From Thuidium tamariscinum (lineage: Eukaryota; Streptophyta; Bryopsida; Hypnales; Thuidiaceae), in the NCBI GenBank assembly GCA_947034885.2, contig OZ019759.1:3784501-3848500 (forward strand): a stretch of 64,000 nt of DNA, written 5' to 3'. The position numbers and the translations under genes were made by a program. Below are positions 11,101 through 55,872 of this stretch, one piece after another. Each line of letters opens with the position of its first letter. Position 1 is the first letter of the stretch. The notes beneath the pieces are model-generated. The model searched no databases and was not told the origin of the DNA. It worked only from the letters and a program-made list of their open reading frames with translations.

Positions 11101-11942
11101 GTCAATGATATGAATGCTATGTACCAATGTTGTTATAATAATACATTGAAGAAAGATTTCTCTATGGTCCACAATTACATTTTGTATTTAAGAATTTTTG
11201 TATTTAAAAAAATTAGTAAGACAACAAGGCAGAACTTACAATTCCATTGGATCCAATGAAATCATTTGTATTGCTATTTTGTTCTCTATTTTCCTCCTAA
11301 ACATTATCTACATTCATATGGTTTTGTTTTCTCTAGAAATAGTTGAACATATTGACAAATATGATTTCTTTTTCAGCTGAGCTTTTTATTAAAATGACCC
11401 TACAATTCTAAATGTTGTACTAAATATTATGAATTTTCATTGAAAGGTAGAAAGCTATGCAATACTAATTTATTGAAATTCTAATGAAATATGCTTTTGT
11501 AGATGGCGGTGGGAAAAACTCGCATGTTTGAAGGTGTGGCAAATGCAAGGGCTGGTGTTGATGTCATTTTTATTGACTGTCCAGAGAACTTGCCTGTGCG
11601 AGGCATCTCTCTTACGTCAAAGGAGGTGCTGTGGCAAGGCATATTTTTTATCTTTCCATTTAAATTCAGTATGGAGCGGAAAGTCGAAAAATTAGCAACC
11701 GGATTTGCTCAGGGAACGGGTAAGATCCAGAAGTAGTACCGGATAATGCTGTAGAGACCGGTGGCAGAATAATTCCGGTTTATTACGACGGAATACCGGA
11801 ACGGAAAAATTCCGGACCCTACAGAACGGATTCTATCCGGATTCAGTCCCAGAACGGAACGGATGATTTCCGGACTTGGACCGATCGGATGGGAAAGGGA
11901 ACGGATAATTAGGAACGAAAGACCGGATCCATTTCTGGAAAG

Positions 11943-11950
11943 TATATAAG
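11943..11950 (+). promoter_or_regulatory. TATA box of unit E
   Basis: TATATAAG is followed by GCCTGACATTTTCAGTTGG, a stretch conserved in the truncated copy F at 21539 onward. It is placed about 360 bases before the ORF, so transcription would start near 11975. Confidence 0.65.
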
Positions 11951-12301
11951 GCCTGACATTTTCAGTTGGCCCATTTGCTCTCGGGCGCTTCGTTGTGCGT
12001 TTTTAAACTCTCAAAGTTTTCCGCCTTTCTGTGAGTTTGTTTTCTGCGCGTGTTTGGTGGCGCGACTTTCTGTGGCGCGGTTGTCAGTGGTAGCGCCTGG
12101 TACTTGTCAGGGCGGGCGATTGTCAGTGTGCGCGGGTTTCAGACGGTGCGCCCAGGCGCTGGTGTGCGCGGGAGGACTGTGTGTGTGTTTTTGTGCAAGT
12201 GATTATTACGGGCGGTTTAGTTTTGTCTGTCATTGTGAGTGTGTGTGAGGAACGGGACGTGCAGCTAGGAGAGAAGTGAGGTAGTTTTCCGGATAGTTGC
12301 C

Positions 12302-13984
12302 ATGCCGCAGCTACGCCGAAAGAGAACCGAGTCCACTACACCCCCACCCTCAGTGATAAAGCTGAAGAAAGTAGTTCCGATCATCCCTTCCACAGAGCCG
12401 GAGAAAGGCAACTTGATGGCGGACTTAACCGCAATGGGGTGTCTAGGGTTAGCAGAGATACCTTGGGGGTTCAAGGAGGAGCGGATGGTGAAGGAACTGA
12501 GAGGAAAGGTGTCGAATCAGTTCGACAACACGACGCGGGGAATGCCGCACAAATGGATGGAGGCGCACTGGAGGGCCGTGTACGGGTTCAAGCACCAGGG
12601 GCACGGACCGGCTGGGAGGAAGGTAGACTTCCTCCAAAACAGGTTTCACGGCACCCCTCACCCGAAGGACGGATATCGGGTGATGGACTGTAACGAAGAC
12701 AGGCACAGACGCCTGTTGAAGTTTCAACTTCCGGTCCTGCATCTGGAAAAGCCAACCCGGGTGACGATCGGCCTGGCCAACACGATCTTCGGTGCCCTGA
12801 TCGGAGACCGGAAAGTGGACTGGGGCCGGATCATACAGGAGTTGATCACCCGGTTGCTGAAGAATCTCGGAGGGAGTAGGGCAACTCCGATCTCTCCCTA
12901 CCTCTTCCACCTCTACCACCATCTGCAGCTCCTCTCGGATACGGAGGAGAAGACGTGGCACGCCCAGAAGATAGTCTTGACGTACGGGGAGATGTCAACG
13001 GATGATGAGGAGAGCTCCGAGTCCGAGACAGAGCGGGAGGACTCAGATAAGGGAGAGGAACCGGAAGTTCCGCTCGTGAAGCGGCAGAAGACCACACCGC
13101 CGAACACGAGGGGATCTCCTCCGGTCCGACACAATCCGGGAACGGAAGGCAAAGCAGGACCGTCCGAACCGGGTCAGGCCGAACCAGCAGCAGAGGAAAC
13201 GGATCCTAGTGATCCGTTCGTGCAATTAACGGAAATCTTGTGCAACATCCGAGCGGATTGGGAGGTCAAGCGGATCGTCCTGGAGAACATCGCGGGGATG
13301 GTCAATGGCAAACCGGATCATACTCTCCCAACCATGGTAGGGAATTGCATCGCCTTGCTTGCGGATCTCGCCAAGCAAGAGGTGGAAAACCGGAAACTTC
13401 AAGAGGAAGTTGACGGTTTGAAGGCGGAGCTCCTTGTTCTCAAGGACAACGAGGCCGCTACCAAGGAGATGGCGACGGAGACCATCAGACTGGCGGAGCA
13501 AGTGAAGGCGACATTCGGGGAACCCGGATCGGCTGCCATCCGGGCTCAGCTGTTTGACGAGGAGGTGCACAAGGAGAAGAAACTGTCCGGAAGCCGGATA
13601 GTCCGGATTCTGTCCGACTTCTCCGAGAAGGTGGAGACAACTCTGGTGAAGGTTCGGGAGGCGGCCGAACGGATGGAAGACTGCAGCCGGAGACTGACGG
13701 AAATTCCGGTCAGACTCTCCGATCTGTCTCTTCCGGATCTTTCCGAAGGGTTGCCTCAGAGGCCAAGGAAGGAGAAGACGCCGCAGTCCAAGAAGTCGGA
13801 GCGGGCGTCGACGGGCAATCGGGAGGCGGCAATTCAGTTGTCGGAGTCTCCTACGAGTCCGGTTACTGGAGCTCCGGTTGCAACAGACGGAGAACGGAAT
13901 CGGAACCTCACTGAGGTCTTCGAGCAGATCAGCAGGGCGGAAAACCCAACTATAGGTTCTAGGGTAGCAGAGCCGGATACGTAG
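12302..13984 (+). CDS. Unit E protein, gag-like or plant-transposon-protein-like, 560 aa
   Basis: This is the only undamaged copy of the family protein in the window. Residues 40-220 form the conserved core, with HPKDGY near 118, RVTIGLANTIFGALIGDRK near 155 and PISPYLFHLYH near 195; these blocks recur in units A, B and D. Residues 233-256 are strongly acidic. Residues 350-470 are predicted coiled coil by heptad pattern and include AIRAQLFDEEV. The tail is Ser/Thr/Pro/Lys-rich. The core recalls the plant domain annotated as putative plant transposon protein (Transposase_32), known from LTR-retrotransposon ORFs; this is my recollection, not a search result. No Cys-His zinc knuckle, protease or polymerase motifs are present. 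The start ATG matches the start in F. A gag-like structural role is inferred. Confidence 0.85.
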   Translation: MPQLRRKRTESTTPPPSVIKLKKVVPIIPSTEPEKGNLMADLTAMGCLGLAEIPWGFKEERMVKELRGKVSNQFDNTTRGMPHKWMEAHWRAVYGFKHQGHGPAGRKVDFLQNRFHGTPHPKDGYRVMDCNEDRHRRLLKFQLPVLHLEKPTRVTIGLANTIFGALIGDRKVDWGRIIQELITRLLKNLGGSRATPISPYLFHLYHHLQLLSDTEEKTWHAQKIVLTYGEMSTDDEESSESETEREDSDKGEEPEVPLVKRQKTTPPNTRGSPPVRHNPGTEGKAGPSEPGQAEPAAEETDPSDPFVQLTEILCNIRADWEVKRIVLENIAGMVNGKPDHTLPTMVGNCIALLADLAKQEVENRKLQEEVDGLKAELLVLKDNEAATKEMATETIRLAEQVKATFGEPGSAAIRAQLFDEEVHKEKKLSGSRIVRILSDFSEKVETTLVKVREAAERMEDCSRRLTEIPVRLSDLSLPDLSEGLPQRPRKEKTPQSKKSERASTGNREAAIQLSESPTSPVTGAPVATDGERNRNLTEVFEQISRAENPTIGSRVAEPDT

Positions 13985-16501
13985 GTGTTAGGATTTCCTG
14001 TATCTTTAGTTTTTGACTTAGGAACGGATTAGGAAGTAATCCGGTCCGGATTAGGAACTTGGAGCGGGTTGGAATCCGTTCTGATTCAGGAGTAGGTAGG
14101 AACGGATCCGCCGAGCGTTAATCGCGGCGGACTTGTATGGCGCTTTTTGCTTTTTGCCCATTATTTAAGTCAGTCCCCTCGCGATGGACTTGGAGTCTTT
14201 CTTTTGCATTTTCCTTGTGTATTTTATTCTCTCTTGCTTTGCGCGTGTATCCTCCGAGTTTGGCAGGGCGGCGTGATGCGGAGTTAAGAAGGTGCAAGTG
14301 GTTTTGCAGGCGACATTCTCCCTTTGGTGCTTATTTTCCGTGTCTGAGTATATGAGAACGAGTAGAGAAGAGTTGGGAGTGTAATTCTAGTGCCTCAGCG
14401 CTTCTAGGACTTAAGATTCTGGGTGAGAAAGCCGTTGTTAGGCTAGGCGAGAGGGAGGGATTCCTTAGTCGTGCTAGAGCTCCTGGGTGGGAAACCCAGT
14501 TGAGTGTCCGATCTCCTGTGAGGTCTCACCGCCTTTGTGGCAAACGGAAGAGTTCTGGTTGACGTTGGAACGGACGGATACACTTGTAGCCACCTGACTC
14601 CCCATGAATGGAAAGCAGTGTCAAAGTCGTTGTAGTATGAGAAGATCATACGGGGGATCTCTGTGTGACCTACAGTCCGGATTTCTATCTGTACTGTTGT
14701 GAGGATCAAACCGGATCTGGAGTAATTTTAGAGTTAACGGGTTGAAAGTGGGTCTTCAGCCACTATAAGTCACGGAAGGAGCGGTGGGCCTACCGCTCAC
14801 AAAATCAAGCGGCGACCCCTCTAATGGTAAAACAGAGGCAAAGCTAAACCGGATTAAGGAACGGGTGTGGACGGATCATCCGGAACGGATTGGTCCAGAG
14901 AGGGAACCAGGAGCGGAATCCGTTAGGGAGCGGATCCATTGCAGTCTGAAGGAACGGATAAATTCCGCAAAACCGGAAAAGTGAGGGAACGGATCCGTTC
15001 CGAACCAGATTGCTAGAATATCAGTTTTGAACGGGATAACAGGTTGTTGTCTTCGGGTTGTTTGTGTGTTTCCGGTTCTAGATCTAGAATCGGATTATAG
15101 AGTTTCGGAGCTGTTCTATCTTAATCGCTTAACTAAGCCAGATACTTCACAGAATCTCGTGGGTTCGATCTTTAGAGTCACTTAGTTATACTCTACAGTG
15201 ATTTTTGTGAGTATAATGGGGAATTTACTTACCCTGTGTTACGACAAGTGCCAAATTGGAATGCGGATTTAGAAGCTAATGCTTTGCAATCCGCATGCAC
15301 CTTTGCAGTGGAACATCTGCACAATGATGGATGCATCATTGTCTTTCACTTCTTCAGCATTGCATCCAGAGAAGATTTAGCAAGAGTTTGTGAAGCATTT
15401 GACTTCAAGAAGAAGAAAGACTGGCTAGGCATGAACCGCATGCATCTCACCTCGCCAATGGATACTTCAAAGACGGTAATTTCAATTCATGTGCTAAAGC
15501 TTTTGTCACCTATTTTCTTTTAAATATCATTCATTGCTCTCTAATGTTCTTGTGTCATATATGTTGCAGATACAAAAGTTTGGAGTCACTCTCTTTGTGA
15601 AGGACCTCAAATCAAAAGGCGAATCCAAATTTTCTTTCAAGCGTACTCACATGATGAAGAAGGATGGGGTCGATGTCGAGAATGATGACATGCTGATGAA
15701 TTACATGCATGCAGATGACATCTCCATGAATGGGAAGAAGCCATGGAGAAGACCACACGAGAAAGACCCGAGGTTCTTCACCCTCCTCCTGGAAGCCACA
15801 AGCAATGAAGGCAATGTCATTGTGGACTACACGGCATCCACAGGTTTGTCTTCAGTTTTAATATTTCACACTTTTATGTCATTGTAACAATTTTGTCTAA
15901 ACTCTAACACATTTTCATTACATAAATGCCTTAGGTGCTTGCATTACGGCTTGTAGAAGAACTAGACGCAACATTCTAGCTTTTGAGGAGGACAAAGATG
16001 TTTTCAATGCCATTTTGAAGCCCATGAAGAAGTCATCAACATCAATGGCAGTGGCTCCAACCCTCGAGACAACAGTGGACTTGACAATGGATGTGCAAGA
16101 CGCGCCTATTGTGCCTCACAAGTTTGTTCGCAAGGGTCAAGGGAAAATCCAGTAAGTAAGTGGAAACTTCTTTCATTCTTTATTATTTTTCTTCATATCA
16201 CATTCGCAAAGACTAATATAATGTCTTAAATTTTTGCAGAGGTTGTGGATTGATCTTGAGAGAGGTCATGGAACAAAATCAAAGGCTTGTCGTCAGTCTA
16301 GAGAAGCCTTTCGAGCTGCCACCCTATGCTGAGTAGATGGCAAGTGCCTTTGCAAATTTTGGTTGTTCCAAATCAAAACGACACAAAGACACTTACGCCC
16401 TCAATGTCTTACTGTTTATAGATGCTTCTGCATCTGAGGGATGGGAGTCCTCAGAGTTGTCTACATGGTCAGATTCAGTGACTGAGTCCACAACCACTTA
16501 G

Positions 16502-21216: not shown

Positions 21217-21538
21217 TATGGCAAGGCATATTTTTTATTTTTTCCGTTTAGCAAATTTTGGGAGCGGAAGTCAGGAATTTAGCATCCGAATTTGTTCATG
21301 GAACGGGTAAGGTCCAGCAATGATACCGGATAATGCCGTAGAGATTCTGGTGGAACAAATCCGGTCCATAATAGTAGAGAACTGGAGCGGAAATGTTTTC
21401 GGACCCCTGCAGAACCGGAGCGGGTTCTTTCCGGATTAAGTTCCAGAGCGGAACGGATCCTTTTCGGACTTATGTACTGACCGGATGGGATCAAGAACGG
21501 AATAGGGAAACCGGAAGACCGGATCCATTTCTGGAGAC

Positions 21539-21546
21539 TATATAAG
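21539..21546 (+). promoter_or_regulatory. TATA box of unit F
   Basis: TATATAAG is followed by the same GCCTGACATTTTCAGTTGG stretch as in unit E. It drives only a truncated frame here. Confidence 0.55.
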
Positions 21547-21889
21547 GCCTGACATTTTCAGTTGGCCCATTTGCTCTTCGGCGCTCCGTTGTGAGTTTTT
21601 CAACCCTCAGCGTTTTGAGTTCGCTTGTTTTATGTGAGTTGGTTTTTTCGTGTGCTGGAGTGATTTTCGGTGGCGCAACCATTTCTGGCGCGGCTGTCAG
21701 TAGGGGTGGTTGGTATTTGTCAGAGCGGACGGCTGTTAGTGGGAACGCGGGTGTGTTTTTGGCAAGCGGGAGTTGTGTGTGTAAGTGTGCAGGTGGTTCT
21801 CTGTGTTTGTGTGAGTGGTTGTGAGGAACGGGATGTGCGGCTAGGAGAGAAGTGAGGTAGTTCTGTTGAAAGGTTTCCGGGTAGCTCTG

Positions 21890-22000
21890 ATGTCGCAGCT
21901 ACGCCGGAAGAGGACCGGATCAAATACTCCCCCTTCCACAGGAGTGAAACTTAGAAAGGTAGTCCACTCATCCCTTCAACGGAGCCGGAGAAGTCCAACC
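21890..22000 (+). pseudogene. Truncated start of the E-family protein in unit F
   Basis: An ATG at 21890 begins MSQLRRKRTGSNTPP, matching the N-terminus of the unit E protein. A small deletion near 21962 shifts the frame and the unit ends soon after, so no product is expected. Confidence 0.6.
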
Positions 22001-26095: not shown

Positions 26096-28689
26096 TTGTC
26101 CTTTTTTTTTATCCCCTTGACCTCCAACAAGTAGTTTTTTGCTCATAACTTTTGCATCTTTCCTTTATTTGGCTTGAAATTTGGAATGAAGGTGCAAACA
26201 AAAGTTTTAGATGTTGAATAATTTTTTTAGAATTTTTAAAATTAGTTTACTATTCTTAATTGCCTCCAATTGGGTGTCTACCTTGGCAATTTGGAGGTTT
26301 TTAGTCCTATTTTTTACTCAAAAATCCAAATTTGAAGCCACAAATAGGACAAGTTGGAGGTCTACTAACATTACAATGAATGACGATGAGTTTTTATGAA
26401 ATTAGCAACATGTCTATTGCACTCATGGGGTTAAAGTGACCTTCCTAGGTACAAAGGCTACAAAGAGGGAAAAAATTTCCTAGAGGAATTTTTTGTTGCA
26501 ATGCAAACGCAATTTCATTTAGAAAAAGTATAATTTTTAATATAATTTTTTGAATTTTTTTTGAATTACTAAAAATGAAAAGGTCTATAGACCTTTTTCT
26601 ATTATTTTCTACTCCTAGTGGCCCGAGTAGTACTTTGTAGCACTCTGTAATTATACATAGTACTATATAGTATTAAATCGACAGCCTAGATTTGCAGGTG
26701 TCCAAAATCAACGGTTGACATTGACAGGTGTAATACAAATGCACAGGATTGGCAGAATTGCACAAGATTGCCAATACTACACCAAAAAACTATTGTCGTG
26801 CGCGCAATCTAACAGAGAGCACCTTTATCACACCCAAACGTGATAACATGATATAGAATATCGTCCCAGGAGACTCCAGACATTACTATTAATTGCGTTA
26901 TCCGATTTCTAGGCTTTTTACCTCTGAAACCCCCAAGTTACTACTTTTCTCTGGAACACCACTATATTTCTGGATTCCATTTTGGATTTGTTACTTTCCG
27001 GATTCCTTCTTTCCTTCCAACTTCCGTTCCGGATTACACCTCTCTCCTTTTTCGGATTCCCTTTCTAGATTCGGATTACACCTTTTTCTAGATCTATGTC
27101 TATCCGGATTCCAGTTTAGTTACTCAATTATCGGGTTTTTTATACCCATGTTTTATCCTCACGGGGTCCTCTCTTGATCTTTAGAGGGGTAGGGACTTTA
27201 CCACTCATAAACCTCACACTCTCTCCTCTCAAACAAAACAAACAAAACACACACAAACACTCAAATAATCCAGGTGTTGCAGTAGAAGCCAATCTGGATC
27301 CTCACAACTTTTCGGATGGATCTTGGCCAATCAAGATAGCAAGTCACTCATGACTACATTCACTTTCCCTTACTACAATGACAGATCCACAGACCCCTAA
27401 GTCCAAAAGGACGTACTTCCCTAGTTCCGCGGATCAACTCAGTGGTTGGCAGACCTTCTAATGGACGGAAACTTTCCTCTGACGGCCGCTTATTTCCACA
27501 CGGATCCAACCCTGTGGATCCAAAACTTCCTCCTACGCCACTCTCGGGCTCACACCGGATCACCATCCCGGCAAATTAAAGGCACCACTCGCAATCACAC
27601 AATTCCGATCCAAGTTCTAGGAAGCTTATCATTCAATTCAGATCTTAGTTGTCTAAGCATTTGGATTCCTCCTCACCCGTCCTTCTCACCTCTCAAGACT
27701 CGAAGAAAATACACCAGTACACTTGAGACACCAAGTTAGAGCCAAAATGTCTGCCTAACGGCTCAGATTAGAGAAAGGAATGAAAATACAATTGAATATG
27801 CGCTAGGATGGAATGACAAGCCAACTAACTTGCCTACCTTTGAATACCAAAACCAAAACCAAAGTCAACACCTAAAAACAAAAAACAAAATGCCAATGCA
27901 ACAAGGAAAAATTTTGAACGACCAATTAGAACCCAACTGTGATATCTGAAAAGGTCCTAGCCAATTGTTCCTAAAATCCTAGATCGAGACCCACATGCGA
28001 GAAACCCATCCTAGAAACATCCGTTACAAAATTTGAATTTGTCTACCCTATTCTACTTGTGGGGCTTCTTCGATGAAGTCGCCCCCGATGGAACTAAGAG
28101 CCTCCGAGCTGCTGGCTTGGCGGGAGGAGTGTTCTTGGTTGCGGATTGAGTCTATCCTTTCGGAGCCGACTTGGGCGGAGCGGGTGGAGTTGTACTCTCA
28201 TCCTCTTCCGTGGTCTCTTCGGAATTGGCTTTGTCTTCATCCGACTCCTCGATCTCTTCCTCGAACTCCCCGTACCCTTGCTCCTTGTCGCAGATGATTA
28301 CCCCACACTCATCCTCCTTGTCGGAATCATCTAGTACGTGCACTATCACCGGTGTATTGTGTGGTACCAAAGTAGCTTCCGTCATATGGGCAAAGCATTC
28401 TGGAAACTCCTTGGCTGAATTCAAAAGTGCCTTCATCTGGATCTCCAGATTGATCCGGGTCGGCGTTGGTGTCGCGACGGGCGGAACAGACTAGACTACG
28501 GACATTTTGGCTCCTGTGCGATCCGGCCCAAGGTTGGACAGCCTCTTCCGCATTGGCATATTCCCTAACAGGCCTCTATCCATCAATAACCTTGCCTACT
28601 GCGTTGGACTAAGGTCTCTGAAGACCAGAAGGTTCATCAATTCCAGAAGGCCTACCCCCATTTCTGGATTCAAATTCCCTACCAAGGCT

Positions 28690-31600
28690 TGTGGCAACCT
28701 AGAATTCACCTAAGTAGGTTCTTAAGCAAAATACGGGAAAAAGGGATTTATTCAATCCCCATTTTTTTTTCCCTTAGTTTGACGCACAATTAAGACCAAG
28801 ACCGGAAACCGGAAAACAGCAGACTGGAAGAAGAAAACTACGTTAAGGAACAGCGTAAGAAAACCCGGATCCAGCCCACCTAGCGACCGAGACCGGATAG
28901 GCAATGAGTGGCTACCGAGCCTAGAGATCGTCGGGAACTCTCCCACGTGACCAGACTAGTTTAAACCTAACGGTTAGTAATTAATGCTGGGGGAAAAGTA
29001 TAAGACCAGGAGAGTAGGGCCAGGTCCTGCCACTTTCTTGCACGCAATTCGAGAAAGGGTCTTCCGGCCAGAGAGAGAGAGTATTCGGTCTACAGATAGA
29101 GAGAAGGGATAGAGAAGCTATCAATCCGGTCTGGTGTAGAGTTGAGCGATTAACACGAAGCCATCTGAGAGACTTTTGAGCATTAAGGGTTTAGTCAAGT
29201 TGGACCGCGCCTAGACAGTGTAATCGTACAGAGAGCGATGGCAAGTGAGGTACAGGAGGGGATGATTCTAGCCTTCCGGAATGTCAATCTGGTCGTGCCA
29301 ACTGACGTACAAGAGAAGCTGGAGTTGGAAGAAGACCTCAGGCAGATGGGCTGCGAGGGGTTTATGGCGCGTCCCTGGAACTTGAAAGACGAGGAGATGG
29401 TGGAGGAATTGTTGGACGGCCAGACCAACGAATGGAAGGGGACGGTCCGGGCGCTGCCAAGGGAGTGGAGTGTGGCTATGTGGCGCAAGGTGTACGCCTT
29501 CGAGCAAGGCGGAGATGCGACGGGCACCCGGACAGACAAGTTTCACCAGGGTAAGTTCCGCAGGCCCACCAACCCGAAGGATGGTTTCACGGTAGCCGAG
29601 TGTGTGTCTGCTAGACACAAGAGGTTGCTACAGTTCATGATGGCGATCTTGAACCCGGATAGACCTAGTAGAATTACGGTCACCGTAGCCAACACCATCT
29701 TTGGTGCACTGTCGGGAGACAGGAGGATAGATTGGGGTTTAGTCATGCGGGAGCAGATGGTTAAAATGGTGAATGGAATTGGGAAATCAAAACCCTCTCC
29801 CATTTCACCATTCTTGTTTCACTTGTACCACTCGTTAGACCTCCTAAGGGAGAGAGAGAGAGAGGCTTACGAGGTGAGAGCTGCAATGATAGAATATGAG
29901 ATAGAGGATCCGGAGGCCGACAAGGACCCGGATGATGAGGTCTCCGAGGAAGAGGGTCAGGATGAGCAGCAAGAGGAACTGCAGGAGAGAAAGGAAGAAC
30001 CAGAGGTAGGAGAAGGTAGTGTGCCGCTAGAAGCCTCTGTGTTGGCAAGAGAGACCCAAGGAGTGGATCCGGTCTGGGACAGGACCCCTTGATGAGGATA
30101 ATCCGGGACCTGGATGACTTTAGGAAGCACCACCTGGAGGAGAGGGGGTTACTGCAGGACATCAGCCGAGCCCTAGGCTCTATCCCACCCTCCAAAATCA
30201 TGGAGGTATTGGGAGAGTTAATTCGGGAAGCCCATGAGAGTCGGGACAGGGAGGAAGTGCTCCGGCTGACGAACCAGGTCTCAGCCCTGAAGAGGGAGCT
30301 CCATCACACTCAGGAGGAGCTGGATGAAGAGAGACGCCTCACCACGAAGGCCCGGAACACTCTCGGAGAAACGGAGAGTTCATCATACATCCGGGCGAAG
30401 TCGTCAACAAGGCCATGCTGTTCGACAAGAAGGTGTTGGAGGCAGGCAAGATGGTAGGTCCACAGATGCTCATTGCTCTGGTGGCCTACAACAAGAAGAT
30501 GGAGGCAATTCTGGAGAAGTGGCGAGCGGTTGCCACGGAGGTCTAGACTAGCTCTATTCCGGTCCCAAGACTGGAGGGGCAGAAGATGGAGGTGGAACAC
30601 CCAAAGGAACAACCACCACCAGCTACTGTTGAGATGGAGGCCGGTGCGTCCGAGCCAGCGAAAGAAGAAGAAATCAGGTCTGAAGCCGTGGTGGAGGTAC
30701 CTATCACACAGACCCAGATTGAAGAGCCAAGGGTTTCTGAACCCGAGAAGACCAAGGAGCCGGAACCCGAGCCAAGTGTGTTGCGGGAGGTTATCCGGGG
30801 AACAACACCACCGAGGGAGAAGACCAAGTTCATCAACTTGCTGGACGATTCTCCCGGTAAGTCATCACCCACAGTCATTACGCAACCAAAGACCAGAGGG
30901 GAAGCAAAGGCAACGGTGCCAGTCCGCACCATACTGAAGACCGGATCTGGATCTGGCTCACCAAGCAAGGGATAGGTCCGGATTGTCGAGAGAGTGGGGG
31001 AGCAGACCCCGCAGAGCAAGGCAGTGCACCATCCGCCCATCACCGGGTTCAAAAAGAAGACCACGGAGACGCCCACAGCTAAGCGGAAGGCCCGAGTTGA
31101 AGAGGAGGAGGATTCAGAAGAGGAAGATGAGGACTCGGAGGAGGAGACCGACTCCGGTGATGAGTCGAACCAGTACTCAGACGCAGACCAAGCACTGGCG
31201 GAGACCAAGCAGACCAGGGCCAAGGCGCAAGGTAAAACCAAGCCGAAACCTAGACCAGTCAAGATGTACCGGTCTCCAAAGAAGCAGCCAGCTCGGAAGG
31301 GTGCATCGCCTGTAAAGCGGGCGAGGAAGTAGGGAAGCATTAACGCCAGGTAGATAGGAAGGCGGCTAAAGCAGGATGTATTTAGGTTAGGTCTTTTTAA
31401 ACCTAGACCGGATCCAGATTTGTAGGATCTGAGATCCTATTTTGTTGGTATTTTTGGAGTTTTGTGGAAGTCAACCCGCCCAAGTTGTAGAGGAATGTCA
31501 CGTGGCATTCTTTGTGGCTGGTGTTGATTCCATTTGCACTTTTAGGTTTACTTGTAGTTTAGTATTTAAACCTGGTTTGTAATTGAATCTGGGCGCGCAT

Positions 31601-32599
31601 TATGTTATCTTACTTTCACAAGTTTTTGTGTTGCAAATACAAGTCAGAGCCTTTCTGATTCACTCTGGAGTGGATTGTGTGCATGGGATCTTGTCTAAGT
31701 GTTATGGTGATGGTTAGGATTGCAGCCTTGTGTAGATGAGTGTGTGCCCGGATGTTCAGTTTATCCGGTCTCTGGACTTAAAGTGAATTCGATTTTGATA
31801 GGGAATTTGTGCAGGATCTCACAGTGTTTTCTGGAACAGGTCTAGGGAGTATTCGATAGGGATAGACACTTGTAGAGTCTAGGTTTGAGATCGGGAAGTA
31901 CCCGGCCAAATGCCAACTGAATGGTGATTCGGTCTCTGTAGAAGAAAGAAGGACTAAGTGAGGAAATTCAGCTCTCTTGCATAAGCTACCGCCCTTGTTC
32001 TACCAGGACTTAGACTAACTGGATAATCTGTCGTTGTAGTCTTTGTTAGGATTAGGCAGGAGTGCTTGCATGACCTGCTGGGCCGGATTAGTCCCGGTCC
32101 AGTTGTGAGGTATTCCGGTCTGGTTGTAGTAGTAGTTTCTTTTTCTTTGCAAGTGGAACTTCTGACACTTTAAAACTTGAAGGGTAGGAGTAAGCTTCCT
32201 TCCTAAACGCCCAAACAAGCAGACCCCTCTTGTTATCGAGGTAAAACTTACATTTGGTTACTAATCTAGGGACTGGACCAACTCCTAGTATCCGGTCTTT
32301 AGTCCCATATCTAGTAAGGGTAAGTATGAAGGCGATAAATATATTGGTATAAATAGATGTACGAGCCTAGAAAGACAAAGGATTAATCTGGCAGCCAGAC
32401 TAAGGAAATCTTAGGTATCTTTGAGACCAGGACCGGATTGGTCTTTTGCTTGGGTTTTGTTGCGGTAACTACTAACGTATTCCGGTCTTTCGTCAACTTT
32501 CGACCAAATCCTTTGGGAACGATACACGAGTCACTTTAAGGCTAATTTAGTACATTCTAACGCCTTAGAGAAGGAATTGTGCTTTCCGGTGCTACGACA
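28690..32599 (+). mobile_element. Retroelement unit D, 3.9 kb, nested in unit B
   Basis: It starts TGTGGCAACC and ends GTGCTACGACA, very like the ends of unit E (TGTGGCAAGG and TGTTACGACA). Flanking pentamers are AGGCT (28685-28689) and GGGCC (32600-32604), a target duplication with two transition differences. Joining the flanks makes the unit B reading frame continuous (MRAL followed by VGNLNP), so it is a clean insertion. A TATA-like GTATAAGA is at 28999-29006. It has a single gene and no second LTR. Confidence 0.8.
29238..31332 (+). pseudogene. Unit D protein gene, nearly complete
   Basis: The first frame (29238-30092, 284 codons) holds the family core: NPKDGFTVAEC, VANTIFGALSGDRRIDWG and PISPFLFHLYH, then an acidic run. 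A frameshift near 30090 moves to a coiled-coil stretch, and a second near 30384 restores the original frame (AMLFDKKVLEAGK, matching RAQLFDEEV in E). In-frame TAG codons follow at 30544-30546 and 30973-30975; the rest (30586-31332) is a Pro/Glu- then Lys-rich tail ending in a basic stretch. With two compensating frameshifts and two stops, a full-length product is not expected. Confidence 0.75.
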
Positions 32600-33294
32600 G
32601 GGCCCTCATTTTCCTGAGCACCGCCTCCATCTTCGCCTAGTAATCCACCAGGATTGTAAGGAGCTTGGTCCCTGTTATGTGCCCCTCTTGTGAGGTGAAA
32701 AGCTGGGCCCTTACCACTGCCTCAGCTGGTTGAGCCACAAGCTCTTTCAAGCTCTGGACCACTGCGGTAGCTTCACTCACCTTCCCCTTGGTGATACTCA
32801 ACTCGTTCTCCAACCAATGCACTTAGTTCTAGAGCGAGTCGTGTTCCGTCCCCACCTTCTTGTGATCCTCTTCTACTTTTCAGATTCGCTCCTCCCCCTT
32901 CCGGATTCGTTCTTCCTGGATCCGAAACTCTTCCGGCCACTTCCGGATCTTTTCATCCTTCCACCGCAGCACTTCTAGGGTCAGGATCCGGTCTAAGACT
33001 TCCAGTATGCCTATTGGCTCAATTCTGCCCAACTTGGCTTCAATTTGTTGGAGTAGTCCTTCGAGGTGGCGATACTCTGCGTAGCCTATGATGAGGTGCT
33101 TGGTAGCAAGGTCGAAGTGGTCCACCTTCTTCGGCGATCCGGGTCTATCGTCCACCGGTACTCCTCTCCTCTCCGGAGTTGTATTTTTTCGACGATCCGG
33201 CTTTCAATCCGGAACGTCCCCACCTTCTTGGTCGCAGTATTCTTCTTCCATAGCTTTTAGATCGTGATCTAGCTCTTCCCGTTCTAGCTCCAAC

Positions 33295-33510
33295 CACTAG
33301 TAGGAACCCTCGTTTAATGTGACAAGGCCTAATTTTTCTTGACGGATTTTGCTTGGCATCAAAAGTAACAACCCGTGTTTTTATGTCAACAAAAACATTC
33401 AACACAACATCAATGTTGACATAAAAACACGGGTTGTTACTTTTGATGCCTAACAAAATCCGTCAAGAAAAATTAGGCCTTGTCACATTAAACGGGGGGT
33501 TCTACTAGTT
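33295..33510. mobile_element. CACTA-type MITE, 216 bp, nested in unit B (M3)
   Basis: It starts CACTAGTAGGAACC and ends GGTTCTACTAGT (last base T instead of G), with target duplication AAC (33292-33294 and 33511-33513). It has the same length and arms as M2 at 3341-3556. It inserted into the unit B gene after unit B itself had landed. Confidence 0.85.
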
Positions 33511-34737
33511 AACTCAGCGATGAGATCATACTTCAGTATTTGAAGTCCGATCTCGTATGCCATCAATTCTGAGGTGTTCAATACGTCCTTCTAATGACAC
33601 AGATGGAACAAGTACGTACTAATAGTATTATACTTGACCCTCTGAACATAGTCAGCTAGTTTAGAAACTAGCTGGGAGATGACCATAGACTAGTTCACGA
33701 TCCACTTCTCAAAACACTCGAAAATGGTGTTTGCCATGGTGATGGTGACCCAGGTAGGCTTTTTCGGGTAGAGGATGGGAATCAGAAATTCCAGCATCCT
33801 CTTATGTCGGTCATTCTCGCAATCTGAGATTGCGTATCCGTCCTTCGGATTTGTCGGATTCCAAAACTTCCCTATTGCGTACTTGTCGTTTCGGATAGCT
33901 AACCCTAATCTGGTTTTCTCAAAACCGTAAACTTCTGCCCAAGTCTTTGCCGTCCAGGTGATCGGTCTTCCTCTCACCGTCAACTAATATTGATTTAGAA
34001 CTCCCGTAAGGAGTTCCTGAATCATTTCCTCATTCTTTACACTTTGCGGACGGCGAATGAGTCCCTTATAACCTAAAATTATTAGGTCATCCTCTAACTC
34101 CTTCCAATGTTGCGGATCGGAAGAGATGACCGGTGATATTAATCTGGCGATCACAACCGCCTTTTGCGGATGAAAAGAGCTTGCCATTTCCTCGTCCGTG
34201 GATCCTCTCTATCGATGCAGTCGGCATCGACCCTAAACTGAACTCGGAACCGATTTCTAACTCACCACTCTTTCACTCAATTATACGCGCACTCTAGAAT
34301 CTGGACAAAACATACATTGCTCACAAACAAAAATTGAAAATGAGGTGGGGCAATGGGGTATAAATACCCGTCGGTACCCGCCGTTCTCGATCTCCAACAA
34401 AAAGTTGCAACGTTCCCGGACCATTACACTAGTTTCCGTAGGTCGGCGGCTTAGACTCGTAGGTGCTATCCATCCGGAACTCACTCAAATCCGATCCGGA
34501 TTGTAACCAATCCGTCCTAGGTTCCGTTCTGCTCACTGCTAGTGTCCGTTCCAAAAACTTTGAGGATCAATTCCGGAAACTTAAAAGACTTTCCAGATGT
34601 GTAAGCCCTTAGGCTGTAAAAGACTCTAGACATCTTTTATTCCTACATTTTAACCTCAAAATTTTGAAAATTTGAACTAATCTAATAAAATACATCTCCA
34701 TTTTATGTTTTGGATATTTTCAAATTGTGACAACTAC

Positions 34738-42177: not shown

Positions 42178-44182
42178 TGTCGTACGCACAATCTAGTCGA
42201 AAGTACCTTTACGTACAAACATGTGGTAAAATGACACGAAATATCGTCCCAGGAGATTCCAAACACTATTATAAATTATGTTTTTCGATTTCTTGGTCTT
42301 TTTTCCAAAAGCTGACCAATTTACTACTTTCCTTTAGATTCGTCTTTTTCCGGATCCCGTTTTTATCCGGATTCCATTACCGGATTGCATCTCTTTCTGG
42401 ATCCGTCTCTTTTTGGATTCCGATTCAATCTCTTAATTAATGGTTTTATATGCTTTAATTTTACCCTTGATCCTTACAGGGGTAGGGATTCACCACTCAT
42501 AAACCTCACCTTCTCCTCTCTCAAACAAAACAAACAAAACATCCAAGTAATCTAGGTATTGCAGCAAGGAAGGAATATCCGGATCCTCACAACTTTTCGG
42601 ATGGCCAATTTTGGACAACAAGTCACTTAGGACTACGTTCACTCTCCCTTACTACAACGATAGACCCAAGGACAACCAATTCCAAAAGGACATACTTCCC
42701 TAGTTCTGTAGATCGATCAAGTGGTTGGCAAATCTTCTGGTGGACAGAAACTTTCTTCTGGCAATCGCTTAACTCCGCATAGAACCACACAAAGATTCCG
42801 GAATCTCCTCTACACCACTCCTAGGCTTTCCACCAAATCACCGTTCCAGCAAATTAAAGGCACTGCGGGCAAATTCACGATTCAAATCTCAAGTTCTAGA
42901 AATGAGTCTTTCAGTTCATTCTTAGTCGCCTAAGTATTTGGATTCCTCCTTGCCCGTCCCTCTCACCTCTTCAACACACCTAAGTGACAAATCAACACAA
43001 TCCGGATACAATGTTGGAGCTAGAATGTAAACCTAGTGGCTCAGATTAAAGAAGGAAATGAAATACAATTGAATAAGAACTAGAATGGAATGAAGGGGCA
43101 ACTAACTTGCCCGCCCTTAAAAACCAAAATCAAAACCAAAGTCAATGCTCCAAAAGTCAGAAAGGCACCATGGAAATTAGGGCAACCAACTAGTGATCAC
43201 CTCAAGATATCCAGAAAGTTCACAGCCAGTTATCCCTAAAAATCTAGATCACCTAGAAATTTGGAATCCTAAAAAATCTAAAATCCGGATCCACACTCAA
43301 AAAATTGGATTCAAATTTTAAAAATAAAGTCCTAAGTAAATGGAGATAGCCTTCGAGCTACCTCCCCCGACTTATTATCTTTAAACTGCTCCTACTTTGA
43401 CTCCCTGGTGTCTTTGCAAAAGCCTTAACTAGAGTAGTCTTGATTGCCACTTGGGTCCAAATCTTTTGTTCCGGATTCATTTTTGGATTCCGGATCCCTT
43501 AGTGTAGAATATTTCCAGATTGATTCCGGATCTTAAACATTTCCGGATCCTAAATATTTTCGGAACATTTCCGGATTGATTCCGGGTCCAATCCCAATAG
43601 TGCCGAAAGTCTTTGAAAATACTTTTTGGATCACTATCCAGGTTCTGGTTTCCAATTAGGACGAAAAGTGTAAACTTTCTCCTTAACCATTTTATCTCAA
43701 TTAAGAGACCCTATGGTTTGCTAATCCATACTTTTAATAATTTCTTTGTTGCTAACTCATAGAAGTAAAAGAACATATTAAAAATGGATTTCTTACTTCA
43801 AATTGTATTTGAAATAACAAAATCTAATTCTTTAGGTAGCAACAGATCCGCTTCTTGAGCTTGCTTTGGATTAGAATCAAGGTATTGGCTTTCGAAACTA
43901 GTTGTACGATGGGCATTCGGATTTCGGTACGCTTTGTTATGGAATCAGACAGCCTTCTTTTCACCTGTAGAGTCTTCCATGCACCTCCCATTCGGATCCT
44001 TTTCGGATTTTTCCGGAAGACTAAACATTGTTATGGAACTTCCAGTTTTGTAAACTCCTTAAACGATAAGAGACTCTAATTATCTTCTATTCCTATGTCT
44101 AAACTATAAAATTTTGAAAAATTGGACCATTCTAGCAAAATACACCCTAACTCTACGTTTTAGACATTTTTGAACCACGACA
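42178..44182 (-). mobile_element. Retroelement unit C, 2.0 kb deletion derivative
   Basis: On the minus strand it starts TGTCGTGGTTC at 44182 and ends GTGCGTACGACA at 42178; flanking pentamers on the plus strand are GCAAT (42173-42177) and ACAAT (44183-44187). Both ends match units A and B, but the protein-coding middle is gone apart from a short stretch near 43.4 kb. It sits in a coding exon of gene J. Confidence 0.82.
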
Positions 44183-46828: not shown

Positions 46829-47194
46829 TGTCACTGTCCGAAAATATCATGTAAGTGAAATAGGAAGATAGTTTATAGAATAGTTCAATTTTTCAAAATT
46901 TTTAGGTTTAGATATGGGGAGGAGAAGACATTTAGAGTCTTTTTACCCTAAGATCCGTCTAAACCGGATTGACCAAGGAGAGTTTCCGGATCCGAATTCC
47001 TCAGTATCTGGAACGGAACTTTCCGGAAGACAGAACTGGCTAAAGACGGATCCGGTACACTCCAGGACGGATCCGAACTAGTTCCGGATGGACGGCAACT
47101 ACGGGTCTACGCCGCTGACCTACGAAAACTAGAGTAACAGCTCGGGAACGTTGCGCCGTTTCGATGAGAACTGGGAACGCAGGGTACCGACTGG

Positions 47195-47202
47195 TATATA
47201 AA
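47195..47202 (+). promoter_or_regulatory. TATA box of unit A
   Basis: TATATAAA is followed by CCACTCCGCCCCACTTCA, the same order as in unit B on the minus strand (near 34360). It lies about 175 bases before the ATG at 47376. Confidence 0.6.
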
Positions 47203-47375
47203 CCACTCCGCCCCACTTCATTTTTCCTTTTCGATTTGGCAAATTGAGGTACGCTTGTGTGCAGGTTTTGGAGCGCGTATAGAGAGAGAAAGAGTGGTGA
47301 GCAGTAGAGATCGGTTCCGGGTTTAGTTCAGGGTCGGTGTCAACCGCACCGACAAGTTCCGACTCGGGCGGAGAG

Positions 47376-49376
47376 ATGGCGAGCTCCTCCAATCCGAAAC
47401 GGATGGTGGTGACTGCCAAGGCGATTTCGCCACTCATCCCTTCCGATCCGCAATATCGGAAGGAATTAGAGGATGATTTAGTCTTCCTAGGGTGTGAGGG
47501 ACTTATCCGATGCCCGTGGAGTGTAAAGAGTGACGAGATGGTGCAGGAACTCCTCACGGGAGTTCCGAATCAGTACCAACTCACGGTGAGGGGTAGACCG
47601 CCTGCCTGGTCACCGGAAGTTTGGGCGGAAGTATACGAGTTTGATAAAACCGGATTAGGTATGGCTTCCTAGACGGACAAGTTTAGTATCAACAAGTTCC
47701 AGAATCCGCCCCATCCGAAGGATGGATATTCGGTTCCGGATTGTACGAATGACCGGCGTAGACGGATGTTGGAATTCTTGATTCCCATCCTCTACCCGGA
47801 AAAGCCTACCCGTGTCACTGTAATAGTAGCGAACACCATCTTCGGATGTTTCGAGAAGCGGATAGTCAACTGGAGCCTAGTCCTCCAGTACGTAGTTAAT
47901 CGGCTAGCCAAACATGTTGGACGGGAGAAGACCAGCCCTATTAGCGCCTACTTGTTCCATTTGTACCATCACAATGACGTACTCAGCGAATCGAAAATCC
48001 TCTCCTATGAGACCGGAGTTCAAATCCTAAAGTAAGGCTTGACGGATGAGGTGGACGCGGATCCGGAGGAACCAGAGGACGAGCAGATGGAAGAAGAACC
48101 TCAGGAGCTGAAGCCGGCCGGCCAGCCAGCCGGAGCGAAAGGCGGAACGGAAGAAATCCACGACGCCGGATAAGAGGGGCAATCCAGACCCGGATCCACC
48201 CGGATCGACTCCGGGTAAGAAGAAGAGGAACCACTTCGACACCATCATCCGACACGCCATGATGGCACATGCGGACAGCAACAACCACCAGGCAATACTC
48301 GAGCAGATCTGTGTCAAGCTGGGCGGAGTGAAGATCGAGGACATTCCGGAAGTCCTGAATCATCTTCCGACTCAAGAGGTGTTACGGAAGAAGGACAAGG
48401 AGATCCGGAAGTGGGAGGACGAAGCCCGGATCCAGACGGATCGGATCCGACAAGCGGAGGATTTGACCCGAGTGGCTGAAGAAGGGCAGAAGAAGGCGAA
48501 AGAGGAGAGGAACGGGCTCCAGAGCACGGTGAACTATCTAGAGAGTGACCTCAGTGTCGCCAATGGAAAGATCACCGAAGCTACCACCCTAGTCCACAAC
48601 CTGAATTGGTGGCCTAACTGGCGGAAGCAGTGGTGAGGGCCCAACTGTTTTCCGCCCGGTTGATACAAGAGGGGCACGTCACCGGATCAAAGCTCCTTAA
48701 TATCTTGGTGGATTACCAAGCCAAGATGGAGGGGGTACTGAAGGAGATGAGGGCCTTGGTTGGGTCCCTCAATCCGAAAATGGGAGAGGGCCTTCCGAAC
48801 TTGCTCAACCAGCAGGTTTACACTGACTTCAGCCCCGGAGCACAAGGACGGATGTCGACGGATCGGAAACTGCTCGGTGACTCTCCAGTCATGAAGAACC
48901 TCGGCGAACTCGGATTGGATCCAAAGGCGACCGGAGCGTCAACCACACCTATGGTTCCGCCCGAGAAGAGGGCAGCGCCACGACTTGACCTAGAGATCCG
49001 GATGAAGGCCCTAGCGCATCCGGACAGGGAGAATCCGGCGAGGGAGGATCCGGAGAAGTTCGCCCATATGAAGGAGCCGGACAAGGTTCCGCACAACACA
49101 CCGGTCATCTTGGACGACTCGGACAAGGAAGACAATCCGCCCATCATCATCCGTGACGAAGTTGGGGAGCAGAGCGGATTCCAAGAAGTAGAGCGGTCGG
49201 AAAGCTCAGAGGCGGAATCAAATGAGACCTCAACGGAAGACAGTGGAACACTGCCAGTCCTGATTCAGAAGAGACAGACCCGATCCGCCACCAAGAAGGC
49301 TCCACCTGCCAAGGTAGTGACGCGCAGGAGTTTAGTTCCGCCCGCGGGTACTACATCGAAGCGGCCGCGTAAGTAG
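47376..49376 (+). pseudogene. Unit A protein gene, with stops and two compensating frameshifts
   Basis: ATG at 47376 starts MASSSNPKRMVV, matching the start in unit B (MASSFHPQKAVV). The core has HPKDGYSVPDC, VANTIFGCFEKRIVNW and ISAYLFHLYHH. In-frame TAG (47670-47672) and TAA (48033-48035) interrupt it. A shift near 48.15 kb moves to the helical part (48259 onward), and a shift near 48.62 kb returns to the original frame at VRAQLFSARL. The remainder to 49376 is a Ser/Glu/Lys tail with PHNTPVILDDSDKEDN, as in unit B. The intact relative is in unit E. Confidence 0.8.
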
Positions 49377-50575
49377 GATAGAGTAGAGTAGTTAGACAGG
49401 GTTTTTTTTGAGATTTTAGATTAGAAGTTTCTTGGACGGATTTCCCGGGTGTGGGCCCCGATCCGAAACTTTAGGAACAACTGGCTGGACCTTTCCGGAT
49501 AATCCGGTTGGGCTCCGATTGGTTGTTTCGGATTTTCTTTTGCCTTGTTGGCATTCCGTTTCTGTTTTTAGGCTTTGACTTTTGTTTTGATTTGGGGCTT
49601 TTAAGGGGCACGCAAGTTAGTTGGCCTGTCATTCCCTCCTAGCGCATATTCATGTATTTTCATTCCTTTCTTTAATCTAAGCCGGCAGGTGAACATTCCA
49701 GCTCTGACTTTTGTGTTTGGGATTCTCTTTGTGTGTTTGTTTGAAGTGTTGAGAGTTAAGAGGGACGGGTGAGGAGGAATCCGGATTCTTAGGCAACTGA
49801 GATCTGAACTGAGTGACTAAGTTCCGAGGGCTAGGGTCTTGACTCGTGAGTTTGAGCGTGGAGCCTTTAATTTGCCGGAACGGTGATCCGGTGTGAGTCC
49901 AGGAGTGACGCGGAGGAGGTTCTGGAACCACAGGGGTGGATCCATGCGAAGTTAAGCAGCCGCCTTAGGAAAGTTTCCGTCCACCGGAAGGTCTACCAAC
50001 CACTGAGTCAATCCGCGGAACTAGGGAAGTGCGTCCTTTCAAGTTTTGGCGGTCTTTTGATCTGTTGTTGTAGTAAGGGCAAGTGAAGTAGTCCTGAGTG
50101 ACCTGCTAACCGGATTGGCTTAGAGCTATCCGGAAAGTTGTGAGGACCCGGATCCGCCTCTACTGCAAAACCGGATATATTTAGGTGTCTTTTTGTGTTT
50201 TGTCTAGTTTATTTGAGGGAAGAGAGTGTGAGGTTTATGAGTGGTGAGTCCCTACCCCTCTAAAGATCAAGAGAGGACCCCCTGAGGGTAAAACAGGGGT
50301 ATCTAAAATCGATAAATCGAAGTGATGGAACCAAAATCCGGATTGAGACGGATCCGGGTAGAAGTGAATTCCGGATCCGGGAAGGGAATCCGGCAATAGT
50401 TGGGATACGGATCCAAAGAGAGGTGACGGATTCGAGGAAAAGGATTCCGGAAAACTAAGTAGTATTCCGGATTGAGAGTAGTAACTTGGGTGTTCTTGTG
50501 CTGGGAAACCTAGAAATCCGAAAACGCAACTAATAGTAACGTCTGGAATCTCCTGGGACGATATTCCGTGTCATA

Positions 50576-50597
50576 TTATCACGTTTGGGTGTGATAA
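50576..50597 (+). repeat. Small hairpin near the 3-prime end of unit A
   Basis: TTATCAC pairs with GTGATAA across an 8-nt loop, about 30 bases before the unit end. The same hairpin is present in unit B (26824-26845 on the plus strand). Conservation suggests a role in RNA 3-prime processing or replication, which is inference. Confidence 0.5.
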
Positions 50598-51229
50598 AGA
50601 TGCTTTCTGCTAGACTGCACGTACGACACATTGTACATTGCAATAATTGTACATGAAGACGTGATATCTTAAAGAATATCATGTTCTCCAACCACTTCAT
50701 TAATGATGTAAATTAGAATGTCAAATCAAAGAACTAAAACACACCTAAAATTATCTTCTACTAAGAGGTGAAAGGTTTCGTCTTCAAATTTTCACAATTA
50801 AAATTGAAAGAGCACAAAGCAAATGTCAATACTCTATAATCAATAATCCTATAGAGTGGCGAGTATAAATAGAAATTAGTAGCATTTTAGAATCTTCAAT
50901 TTCAAAATGTAGAAATGATTTAACTTCTAAAGGACGTTGAAGCGAAAAAAGGTTGGCATATATTGTCAACATAATGAATGTATATGGTCCTCTACTAACA
51001 CTCAAAAATTTCCAAAAAATTCTCAATTGATAAGTGGTATATCTATGACGTGGTGTGAAATTTACAACTTGAATGGAATTCATGTCCTAGTTAATTTTCC
51101 TTTATATATAGATCACTATAGAATGTACAAAACAACATACTTTAGAGGTTCAAAAATAATTTACAAAGTATTGTTGATAGAAAGAAATAGAAAGTAGGAA
51201 GTTATCTCAAGGAAAGTAGAAGTATATAT

Positions 51230-55120: not shown

Positions 55121-55227
55121 AGTCGTGACGAGTCAGGATGCGTCAGAGGCCGTCCCGAATGCTGACGGCGTCGTCGACGGCCTGGATGAAGTCCGTCGAC
55201 CGTCGACAAGGCCGTCCACCATCGACA

Positions 55228-55500
55228 GGGCCGTCGAGGAGGCCGTCCACCGTCGACAGGGCCGTCCACGAGGCCGTCGACCGTTAACAGGGCCGTCGAG
55301 GAGGTCGTCGACCGTCGACAGGGCCGTCGAGGAGGCCGTCCACCGTCGACAGGGCCGTCCACGAGGTCGTCGACCGTTAACAGGGCCGTCGAGGAGGTCG
55401 TCGACCGTCGACAGGGCCGTCGAGGAGGCCGTCCACTGTCGACAGGGCCGTCCATGAGGCCGTCGACCGTTAACAGGGCCGTCGAGGAGGTCGTCGACCG
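55228..55500. repeat. 31-bp tandem array with 93-bp higher-order period
   Basis: About nine 31-bp monomers start GGGCCGTC(G/C)A(G/C)GAGG and end GTCGACA or GTTAACA. They fall into three successive triplets, so the true period is 93 bp. Because 93 is divisible by three, both strands stay open for over 100 codons here without being genes. Confidence 0.85.
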
Positions 55501-55688: not shown

Positions 55689-55872
55689 GGTTCGATTCTA
55701 TCCTGGACGGTCCGGTCGACGGTGGACGGCCTCGTCGACGGCCCTGTCGACGATTTTTCATCCTCTGTCGCGGATTTTGTCGTGAATTTCATCCTGACGG
55801 ACGCTCGGCTCCCCGTCACGTCAGCGGACGGACATCCTGACGCACGGACGTGACGCGACGGAAGCAACCCTG

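What the first reader, a model, noticed from the sequence alone, without database searches (positions are those of the whole stretch)
46829..50628. A family of 3.6-3.9 kb TG...CA units with 5-bp target duplications that encode one protein and no polymerase
Units A (46829-50628), B (26794-34732 with nested DNA), C (42178-44182), D (28690-32599) and E (11630-15246) all start TG, end ACGACA or GTACGACA, and sit between matching pentamers (A perfect, B, C and E with one mismatch, D with two transitions). A and B stripped of insertions differ by only about 5 bp in length. Each full copy has TATA box, leader, one conserved gene and about 1.2 kb of tail, but there is no second LTR, primer-binding site, reverse transcriptase or integrase. 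By established criteria TG...CA plus 5-bp duplications means LTR-type integration, so these are either solo LTRs that carry a gene within the LTR, or a self-contained unit class mobilised in trans.
Basis: partly seen in the sequence, partly recalled or inferred. Interest (0 to 1): 0.9.

Follow-up and report, generated by a model that had tools for sequence, protein, structure and literature searches.

The report
Solo LTRs carrying their own gene
These units are leftover end repeats of a plant retrotransposon whose long end repeats each carry a conserved protein gene, so a leftover repeat can keep a complete gene with its own promoter.

Summary
Units A, B, D and E begin TG, end CA, sit between 5-bp duplications and carry one related gene; C is an internally deleted copy, and a sixth, truncated copy lies at 21218-21992. 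The window's own genome (363 Mb, 19 contigs) settles the nature of the units. E-type units occur in direct-repeat pairs 9.52 kb apart; the interior read (5.9 kb) has a primer-binding site, gag, CCHC, reverse transcriptase, RNase H, integrase and a purine tract. A- and D-type sequences also start directly behind pol genes elsewhere. The gene lies inside the LTR, downstream of a TATA box. LTR-borne copies are open over 560, 577 and 638 codons in three LTR types, and dN/dS is about 0.2 between subfamilies. The protein has no Pfam match above cut-off and no PDB or fold match, but 108 homologues in a protein database. Plant LTR retrotransposons with extra genes are known; a long conserved gene inside a plant LTR did not appear in the paper listings I searched. 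What the protein does is inferred, not shown. Among copies tested, solo LTRs far outnumber complete elements.

The parts
46829..50628 (+). Unit A: solo LTR, 3800 bp, TSD CATTG on both sides
   Evidence: ends read; 46 genome match rows, other copies 94% or less identical; A-type LTR starts behind pol in L104 (start only), L110, L111 and L112
47195..47201 (+). TATA box of unit A (TATATAA)
   Evidence: sequence; promoter use inferred
47376..49376 (+). LTR gene of unit A, broken by stops and frame shifts
   Evidence: pieces match the E protein at 52%, 39% and 38% identity; open pieces 47301-47669, 47673-48032, 48112-48633, 48618-49373
26794..34732 (-). Unit B: solo LTR interrupted by unit D and a MITE-like hairpin
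   Evidence: 74% and 70% identical to A over its two arms; flanks ACTAT/ACTAC
28690..32599 (+). Unit D: solo LTR of a second type, inserted in the gene of B; TSD AGGCT/GGGCC
   Evidence: A supplies the unoccupied site; 44 genome match rows; D-type LTR behind pol in L107 and L108
28999..29004 (+). TATA-like box of unit D
   Evidence: sequence; inferred
29238..30092 (+). 5' part of the LTR gene of unit D (284 codons)
   Evidence: 39% identical to the E protein over 211 aa, E 4e-61; dN/dS 0.16 to an LTR-borne copy open over 577 codons
42178..44182 (-). Unit C: internally deleted relative of A/B, gene lost
   Evidence: matches A 48-115 and, in pieces, A 2642-3800; flanks GCAAT/ACAAT
11630..15246 (+). 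Unit E: solo LTR of a third type, 3617 bp
   Evidence: 40 genome match rows, 7 of them the LTRs of paired elements; empty site is an open frame; flanks GGTGC/AGTGC
11943..11949 (+). TATA box of unit E (TATATAA)
   Evidence: sequence; inferred
12302..13984 (+). Intact LTR gene of unit E, 560 aa: mostly helical domain about residues 10-230, disordered linker, coiled coil 305-467, disordered tail
   Evidence: 108 homologues; AlphaFold2 mean pLDDT 75
15152..15169 (+). GAATCTCGTGGGTTCGAT motif near the 3' end of E, shared in part by A, B, C and D
   Evidence: alignment; similarity to U5 ends of plant gypsy LTRs is recalled only
21218..21992 (+). Unit F: 5' piece of an E-type LTR (71%), starting TATGG, cut inside the gene
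33293..33509 (.). Hairpin (MITE-like) insertion nested in unit B; second copy at 3339-3556
   Evidence: 94% alike, arms about 96 bp

Best explanation
The units are solo LTRs of several related types of Ty3/gypsy LTR retrotransposons in a plant-like genome. Each full LTR (3.6-3.9 kb) has about 0.3-0.4 kb of U3-like promoter DNA ending in a TATA box, a leader, a gene of about 560-640 codons where intact, about 1.2 kb of tail, and TG..CA ends. The complete E-type element that was read is LTR - PBS - gag - CCHC - RT/RNase H/integrase - purine tract - LTR, 13.1 kb (a protease domain was not looked for). Such elements spread by reverse transcription and integrate with a 5-bp duplication; recombination between the two LTRs then removes the interior and leaves a single LTR. 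The anatomy is shown; the recombination step follows from established knowledge of LTR elements. Inferred: since the gene lies downstream of the LTR's own TATA box, it is the first open frame of the element's RNA and can stay a complete transcription unit in a solo LTR. Its product, a helical domain plus coiled coil without a recognised enzyme domain, most likely works in trans as an accessory protein of the element, such as a regulator of its RNA or expression or a Gag-associated factor. It has been kept by selection (dN/dS about 0.2).
For: E-type units on one strand at constant spacing: C2 8438338/8447860/8457382 (9522 bp, twice), C5 30006733/30016255 (9522), C4 22786323/22795847 (9524). The C5 interior has a PBS-like TGGCGCCGCTGCCGGGG 11 nt after the LTR and a purine tract before the 3' LTR, plus Retrotrans_gag 3e-10, zf-CCHC 4e-10, RVT_1 2e-20, RT_RNaseH 3e-35, Integrase_H2C2 1e-13 and rve 7e-11. 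Outer TSDs are perfect in 3 of 3: GTAAT on C5, GCGAG on C4 and CTGGG around the C2 array. The genes in the two LTRs of the C5 element are identical over 560 codons. Of 13 pol genes whose 3' side was read (of 34 places), 12 run through a purine-rich tract into a TG.. LTR start, and in 9 of 13 tblastn finds the gene there, in one of them only a 75-aa piece; these are A-, D- and E-type LTRs and two further types. One D-type LTR is followed by a PBS-like stretch and then pol. dN/dS is 0.18-0.21 between the window's E gene and six loci (five distinct sequences) open over 560 codons, 0.19 and 0.20 for two more, and 0.16 within D over 284 codons.
Against: No complete element was found by spacing among the scored A- or D-type LTR matches, although only 37 of 551 and 36 of 789 candidates were scored; the link of A and D to pol rests. 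4 of 13 pol-adjacent sites lack the gene: two have deletions inside the LTR, one diverges after about 250 bp, one shows no LTR. One of 16 tested E copies has flanks that do not match. Two shorter frames give dN/dS 0.43 (261 codons) and 0.16 (377 codons), and comparisons among nearly identical young copies scatter from 0.2 to 1.6 on few differences. No transcript or protein evidence exists; the function is inferred.
Confidence: 0.96

Rival explanations
1. Self-contained single units mobilised in trans, with no two-LTR stage.
For: No interior was found in the window, and of the E-type copies without a partner that were tested 14 of 16 are single with perfect duplications; a transposing single unit would look the same locally.
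Against: Units of type E are paired at constant spacing, and the interior read has gag-pol, PBS and PPT; a transcript starting at the internal TATA box would lack the first 0.3-0.4 kb, so one unit could hardly be copied whole by itself; an LTR-interior-LTR-interior-LTR array on C2 points to LTR-LTR recombination.
Confidence: 0.03
2. DNA transposon with short TGTCG-like inverted ends and the LTR gene as transposase.
For: Ends are weakly inverted (TGTC../..GACA) and the protein is the only one recognised in the unit.
Against: The same termini are the LTR ends of elements with reverse transcriptase and integrase; no transposase family is among the matches of the E protein or among the 25 of 88 families shown for 51 members; no fold match at E 0.001.
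Confidence: 0.01
3. The LTR gene is a non-functional passenger captured once and decaying.
For: In 25 A-type copies examined the longest open stretch is 595 codons and no copy is open over the whole gene; two LTRs of one type have lost most of the gene, beside pol genes with one and three stops.
Against: dN/dS 0.16-0.21 between subfamilies over the longer frames; frames of 560, 577 and 638 codons in LTRs next to pol in three types; homologues with conserved columns on many other contigs.
Confidence: 0.05
4. The LTR gene is a second structural (Gag-like) protein rather than a regulator.
For: Mostly helical domain followed by a coiled coil; a separate transcription unit could adjust its amount.
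Against: The interior already encodes Gag with CCHC; no fold match to a capsid protein at E 0.001.
Confidence: 0.3

Closest known systems
Ty3/gypsy LTR retrotransposons of plants (Neumann et al. 2019, PMC6317226; passages read)
   Same: gag, RT, RNase H and integrase in that order, PBS, PPT, TG..CA LTRs, 5-bp TSD; that paper reports LTRs up to about 5 kb, and extra ORFs in most OTA elements
   Different: The extra gene lies inside the LTR, so twice per complete element; [quoted passage not shown]
OTA elements with extra ORFs bearing the plant mobile domain, Transposase_28 or Athila ORF-1 (same paper)
   Same: Large plant gypsy elements with an extra lineage-specific protein
   Different: No such model is among the matches of the E protein or the 25 of 88 families shown for 51 members; no chromodomain and no second RNase H listed at E 0.01 in one pol
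Mouse mammary tumour virus sag (LTR-borne gene; recalled, seen only in search listings)
   Same: A protein gene within the LTR, so present twice per provirus
   Different: Animal retrovirus, and sag lies in U3 (recalled); here the gene lies downstream of the TATA box; the proteins were not compared
TR-GAG, LARD and TRIM non-autonomous plant elements (listing; details recalled)
   Same: Ends of LTR type and little or no pol
   Different: Those have two LTRs; these units are single LTRs, and complete members have their own pol

Membership tests
Ty3/gypsy LTR retrotransposon | RT - RNase H - integrase order in pol | tested here: met
   RVT_1 525-686, RNase H 751-880, H2C2 1001-1057, rve 1074-1172
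Ty3/gypsy LTR retrotransposon | two LTRs in direct orientation with TG..CA ends and 5-bp TSD | tested here: met
   C5 GTAAT, C4 GCGAG, C2 array CTGGG
Ty3/gypsy LTR retrotransposon | PBS after 5' LTR and PPT before 3' LTR | tested here: met
   D type PBS-like stretch; complementarity to tRNA-Asp is recalled, no tRNA was compared
Ty3/gypsy LTR retrotransposon | gag with zinc knuckle | tested here: met
   Retrotrans_gag 3e-10, zf-CCHC 4e-10
Solo LTR | one LTR with its own TSD, no interior, same sequence as LTRs of complete elements | tested here: met
   perfect TSD in E 14 of 16, D 9 of 10, A 18 of 24; identity with LTRs of complete elements read for type E, with pol-adjacent LTRs for A and D
Chromovirus clade | chromodomain at the C-terminus of integrase | tested here: not met
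   none listed at E 0.01 in the one pol scanned
Tat clade (OTA) | additional RNase H (aRH) | tested here: inconclusive
   Pfam lists only the usual RNase H; no aRH profile was used
Phygy clade of Physcomitrella | insertion preference for NCGN and short elements | tested here: not met
   TSDs are varied, most without CG; the complete element is 13.1 kb; no RT tree was made
TR-GAG or TRIM | non-autonomous element with two LTRs | tested here: not met
   the complete member read has pol

The most novel reading that the evidence does not exclude
By placing a trans-acting gene in the LTR, these elements make it resistant to a common form of removal: each LTR-LTR recombination deletes gag-pol but leaves a complete promoter-gene unit. 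Solo LTRs would then be a dispersed reserve of helper genes that keeps supporting, or regulating, the few complete elements.
Probability: 0.3. Interest if true: 0.8.

Novelty: new variant of a known kind. Interest (0 to 1): 0.6.

Why it matters
Solo LTRs are usually counted as dead promoters. Here an LTR is also a gene, found in five LTR types, present twice in a complete element, and without a Pfam family above cut-off. It gives a testable case of a retrotransposon that keeps a protein gene alive through its own excision. It also shows one way in which genes of unknown function multiply in such genomes, and warns annotators that LTRs of 3-4 kb can be coding.

Tried and rejected
Trans-mobilised single unit and DNA transposon: rejected by the paired elements. 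Units as parts of a larger element in the window: rejected, each has its own pentamers, and no interior protein (tblastn, E 0.01) or interior DNA (blastn, E 0.001) of the E-type element matches the window. B and C as the two LTRs of one element: rejected, each has its own pentamers. Protein families: Pfam gave only weak, scattered matches (25 of 88 families shown in the latter), PDB sequences none, folds none at E 0.001. Relatives in IMG/VR, GTDB and plasmids: none confirmed. Literature: ten searches spent; no listed title or abstract start names a conserved gene inside a plant LTR, and some lists were cut (10 of 19, 15 of 16, 15 of 28, 10 of 12); (sequence motifs) was useless. PMC1560396 (passages) speaks of a maize gene within an LTR retrotransposon, not inside an LTR; PMC4016481 (passages) was a false match.

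Function of the protein could not be tested. The species was not established: a TTTAGGG-type tandem and eleven contigs of 17.5 Mb or more seen among 19 suggest a plant, possibly a moss, by recall only.
Full report
What was checked in the window. The five units are real. Their ends and pentamers are as described, with A perfect, B, C and E at 4 of 5, and D at 3 of 5. D lies inside the gene of B. The matching place in A is unoccupied and suggests the original pentamer AGGCC, from which both copies beside D differ by one transition each. E interrupts an open frame: removing E and one copy of the pentamer gives one frame of about 132 codons across the junction; no homologue of that frame was sought. 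C is a deletion derivative without the gene. Self-comparison of the units (B with D cut out) shows no long terminal direct repeat. No RT or integrase was found among 20 of the 116 window ORFs of 90 or more codons, and nothing in the window matches the E-type interior.

The gene. E encodes an intact 560-aa protein. D and A encode relatives: 39% identity over 211 aa for D, and 52%, 39% and 38% over three pieces for A. A database search found 108 homologues, and a profile search 125; both scored only the candidates sharing most words (7972 and 7971). No Pfam family passes its cut-off in the nine proteins, and 51 members scanned one by one gave weak, scattered matches (25 of 88 families shown). 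AlphaFold2 gives a confident, mostly helical domain (about residues 10-230), a disordered linker, a long helical stretch (305-467) and a disordered tail. No PDB or viral fold matches at E 0.001.

The genome. The window lies at C11:3784501-3848500 of a 363-Mb assembly in 19 contigs. The A search gave 46 match rows (37 of 551 candidates scored), E 40 rows (40 of 407), D 44 rows (36 of 789). Duplications: 24 of 30 tabulated A-type copies have TG..CA ends, with 18 perfect pentamers and 23 with at least 4 of 5 matching, against a shuffled mean of 1.4 and maximum of 7. For 26 D- and E-type copies tested 23 are perfect, against a shuffled mean of 0.9 and maximum of 7; the three others are one D copy with 3 of 5, one E copy followed by a PBS, and one E copy whose flanks do not match.

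Two-LTR elements. E-type units stand in same-strand pairs at 9522-9524 bp on C2 (three units, two interiors), C5 and C4. The outer pentamers match perfectly in all three places: GTAAT on C5, GCGAG on C4 and CTGGG around the C2 array. The C5 interior, the only one read whole, begins with a PBS-like stretch and ends in a purine tract. It encodes gag, a zinc knuckle, reverse transcriptase, RNase H and integrase. The gene in its two LTRs is identical over 560 codons, which marks a recent insertion or gene conversion. One of the three copies compared has a private in-frame stop in gag; an in-frame TGA before pol is shared by all three.

Other types. A search with pol listed 34 places, scored out of 1109 candidates. 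I read 3.2 kb behind 13 of the 34. In 12 of 13 a purine-rich tract is followed by an LTR start. In 9 of 13 the LTR gene is found by tblastn with the E protein and 13 homologues (E 1e-5), in L112 only as a short piece. By DNA match the LTRs are A-type in L110, L111, L112 and (start only) L104; D-type in L107 and L108; E-type in L114 and L115; L102 and L106 represent two further types. Full-length frames were seen in L102 (638 codons), L107 (577), L114 and L115 (560 each), that is 4 of 13. L103 and L109 belong to the L102 type but have lost most of the gene by different deletions. One D-type LTR has a PBS-like stretch directly behind it and pol next.

Selection. Between the window's E gene and the E-type loci open over 560 codons (L034 and L035, which are identical, L036, L038, L039, L040) dN/dS is 0.18-0.21; the two shorter frames give 0.43 (L037, 261 codons) and 0.16 (L041, 377 codons). 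L114 and L115 give 0.20 and 0.19, and within type D it is 0.16 over 284 codons. Among the nearly identical young copies the ratio scatters from 0.2 to 1.6 on few differences. In 25 A-type copies examined the longest open stretch is 595 codons and no copy is open over the whole gene.

How it most likely works. Shown: two-LTR elements of type E with polymerase, PBS, PPT and 5-bp duplications; single LTRs of the same sequence with their own duplications; the gene inside the LTR; selection on it. Established knowledge: integrase of gypsy elements makes short duplications, and LTR-LTR recombination leaves solo LTRs. A survey of fifteen plants notes high solo ratios in Physcomitrella and cites a link between LTR length and solo formation (PMC7251063, passages). 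Inferred: the TATA box lies upstream of the gene, so the gene is the first frame of the element RNA and can be transcribed from solo LTRs too; gag must be reached by splicing, internal initiation or another promoter; the protein acts in trans.

Comparison. The element read meets the tests for Ty3/gypsy. It lacks a recognised chromodomain; membership of Tat could not be decided; the TSDs do not show the NCGN target preference reported for Phygy (PMC6317226, passages). Extra ORFs in plant LTR elements are well known (PMC6317226, passages; PMC7264820, abstract start and two passages). The passages read do not say whether any lies inside an LTR. A gene in the LTR is known from MMTV sag (recalled). 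Hence a new variant of a known kind.

Limits. Only part of the candidates was scored in each genome search; two genome searches did not complete; no expression data were available; the species is unknown.

Noticed in passing
contig C11 of the window's genome (17.5 of 363.2 Mb): C11 holds 32 of 46 A rows, 13 of 40 E rows and 39 of 44 D rows (rows can be pieces of one copy), against about 2 expected by length. This may be a gypsy-rich sex chromosome as described in mosses (PMC11704416, passages); but the queries come from C11, which biases the ranking.
   Followed up: partly
3339-3556 and 33293-33509: Two copies (94%) of a MITE-like hairpin with arms of about 96 bp; one is nested in unit B.
   Followed up: no
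55138-55691: GC-rich 31-bp tandem array followed by a 96-bp, 98% complementary inverted repeat with a 3-bp spacer.
   Followed up: no
57539-59140 and 61361-62593: Two related gene copies, each encoding a frame with weak coiled-coil matches followed by a RING-H2-like frame.
   Followed up: no
18144-18578: Frame matching DUF7869 (PF25273, E 2.5e-16), downstream of unit E.
   Followed up: no
L031:1851-1853 and the matching place on C2 and C4: An in-frame TGA followed by CGG between the zinc-knuckle frame and pol, shared by 3 of 3 copies compared; possibly read-through.
   Followed up: partly
L103 and L109: Two LTRs next to pol of the L102 type that have lost most of the LTR gene by different deletions; gene-less derivatives may depend on other copies.
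   Followed up: partly
about 50245-50315 (A) and 14780-14840 (E): Conserved tail block whose hairpin stem seems to differ between A and E by paired changes, read by eye in the alignment; no structure was computed.
   Followed up: no
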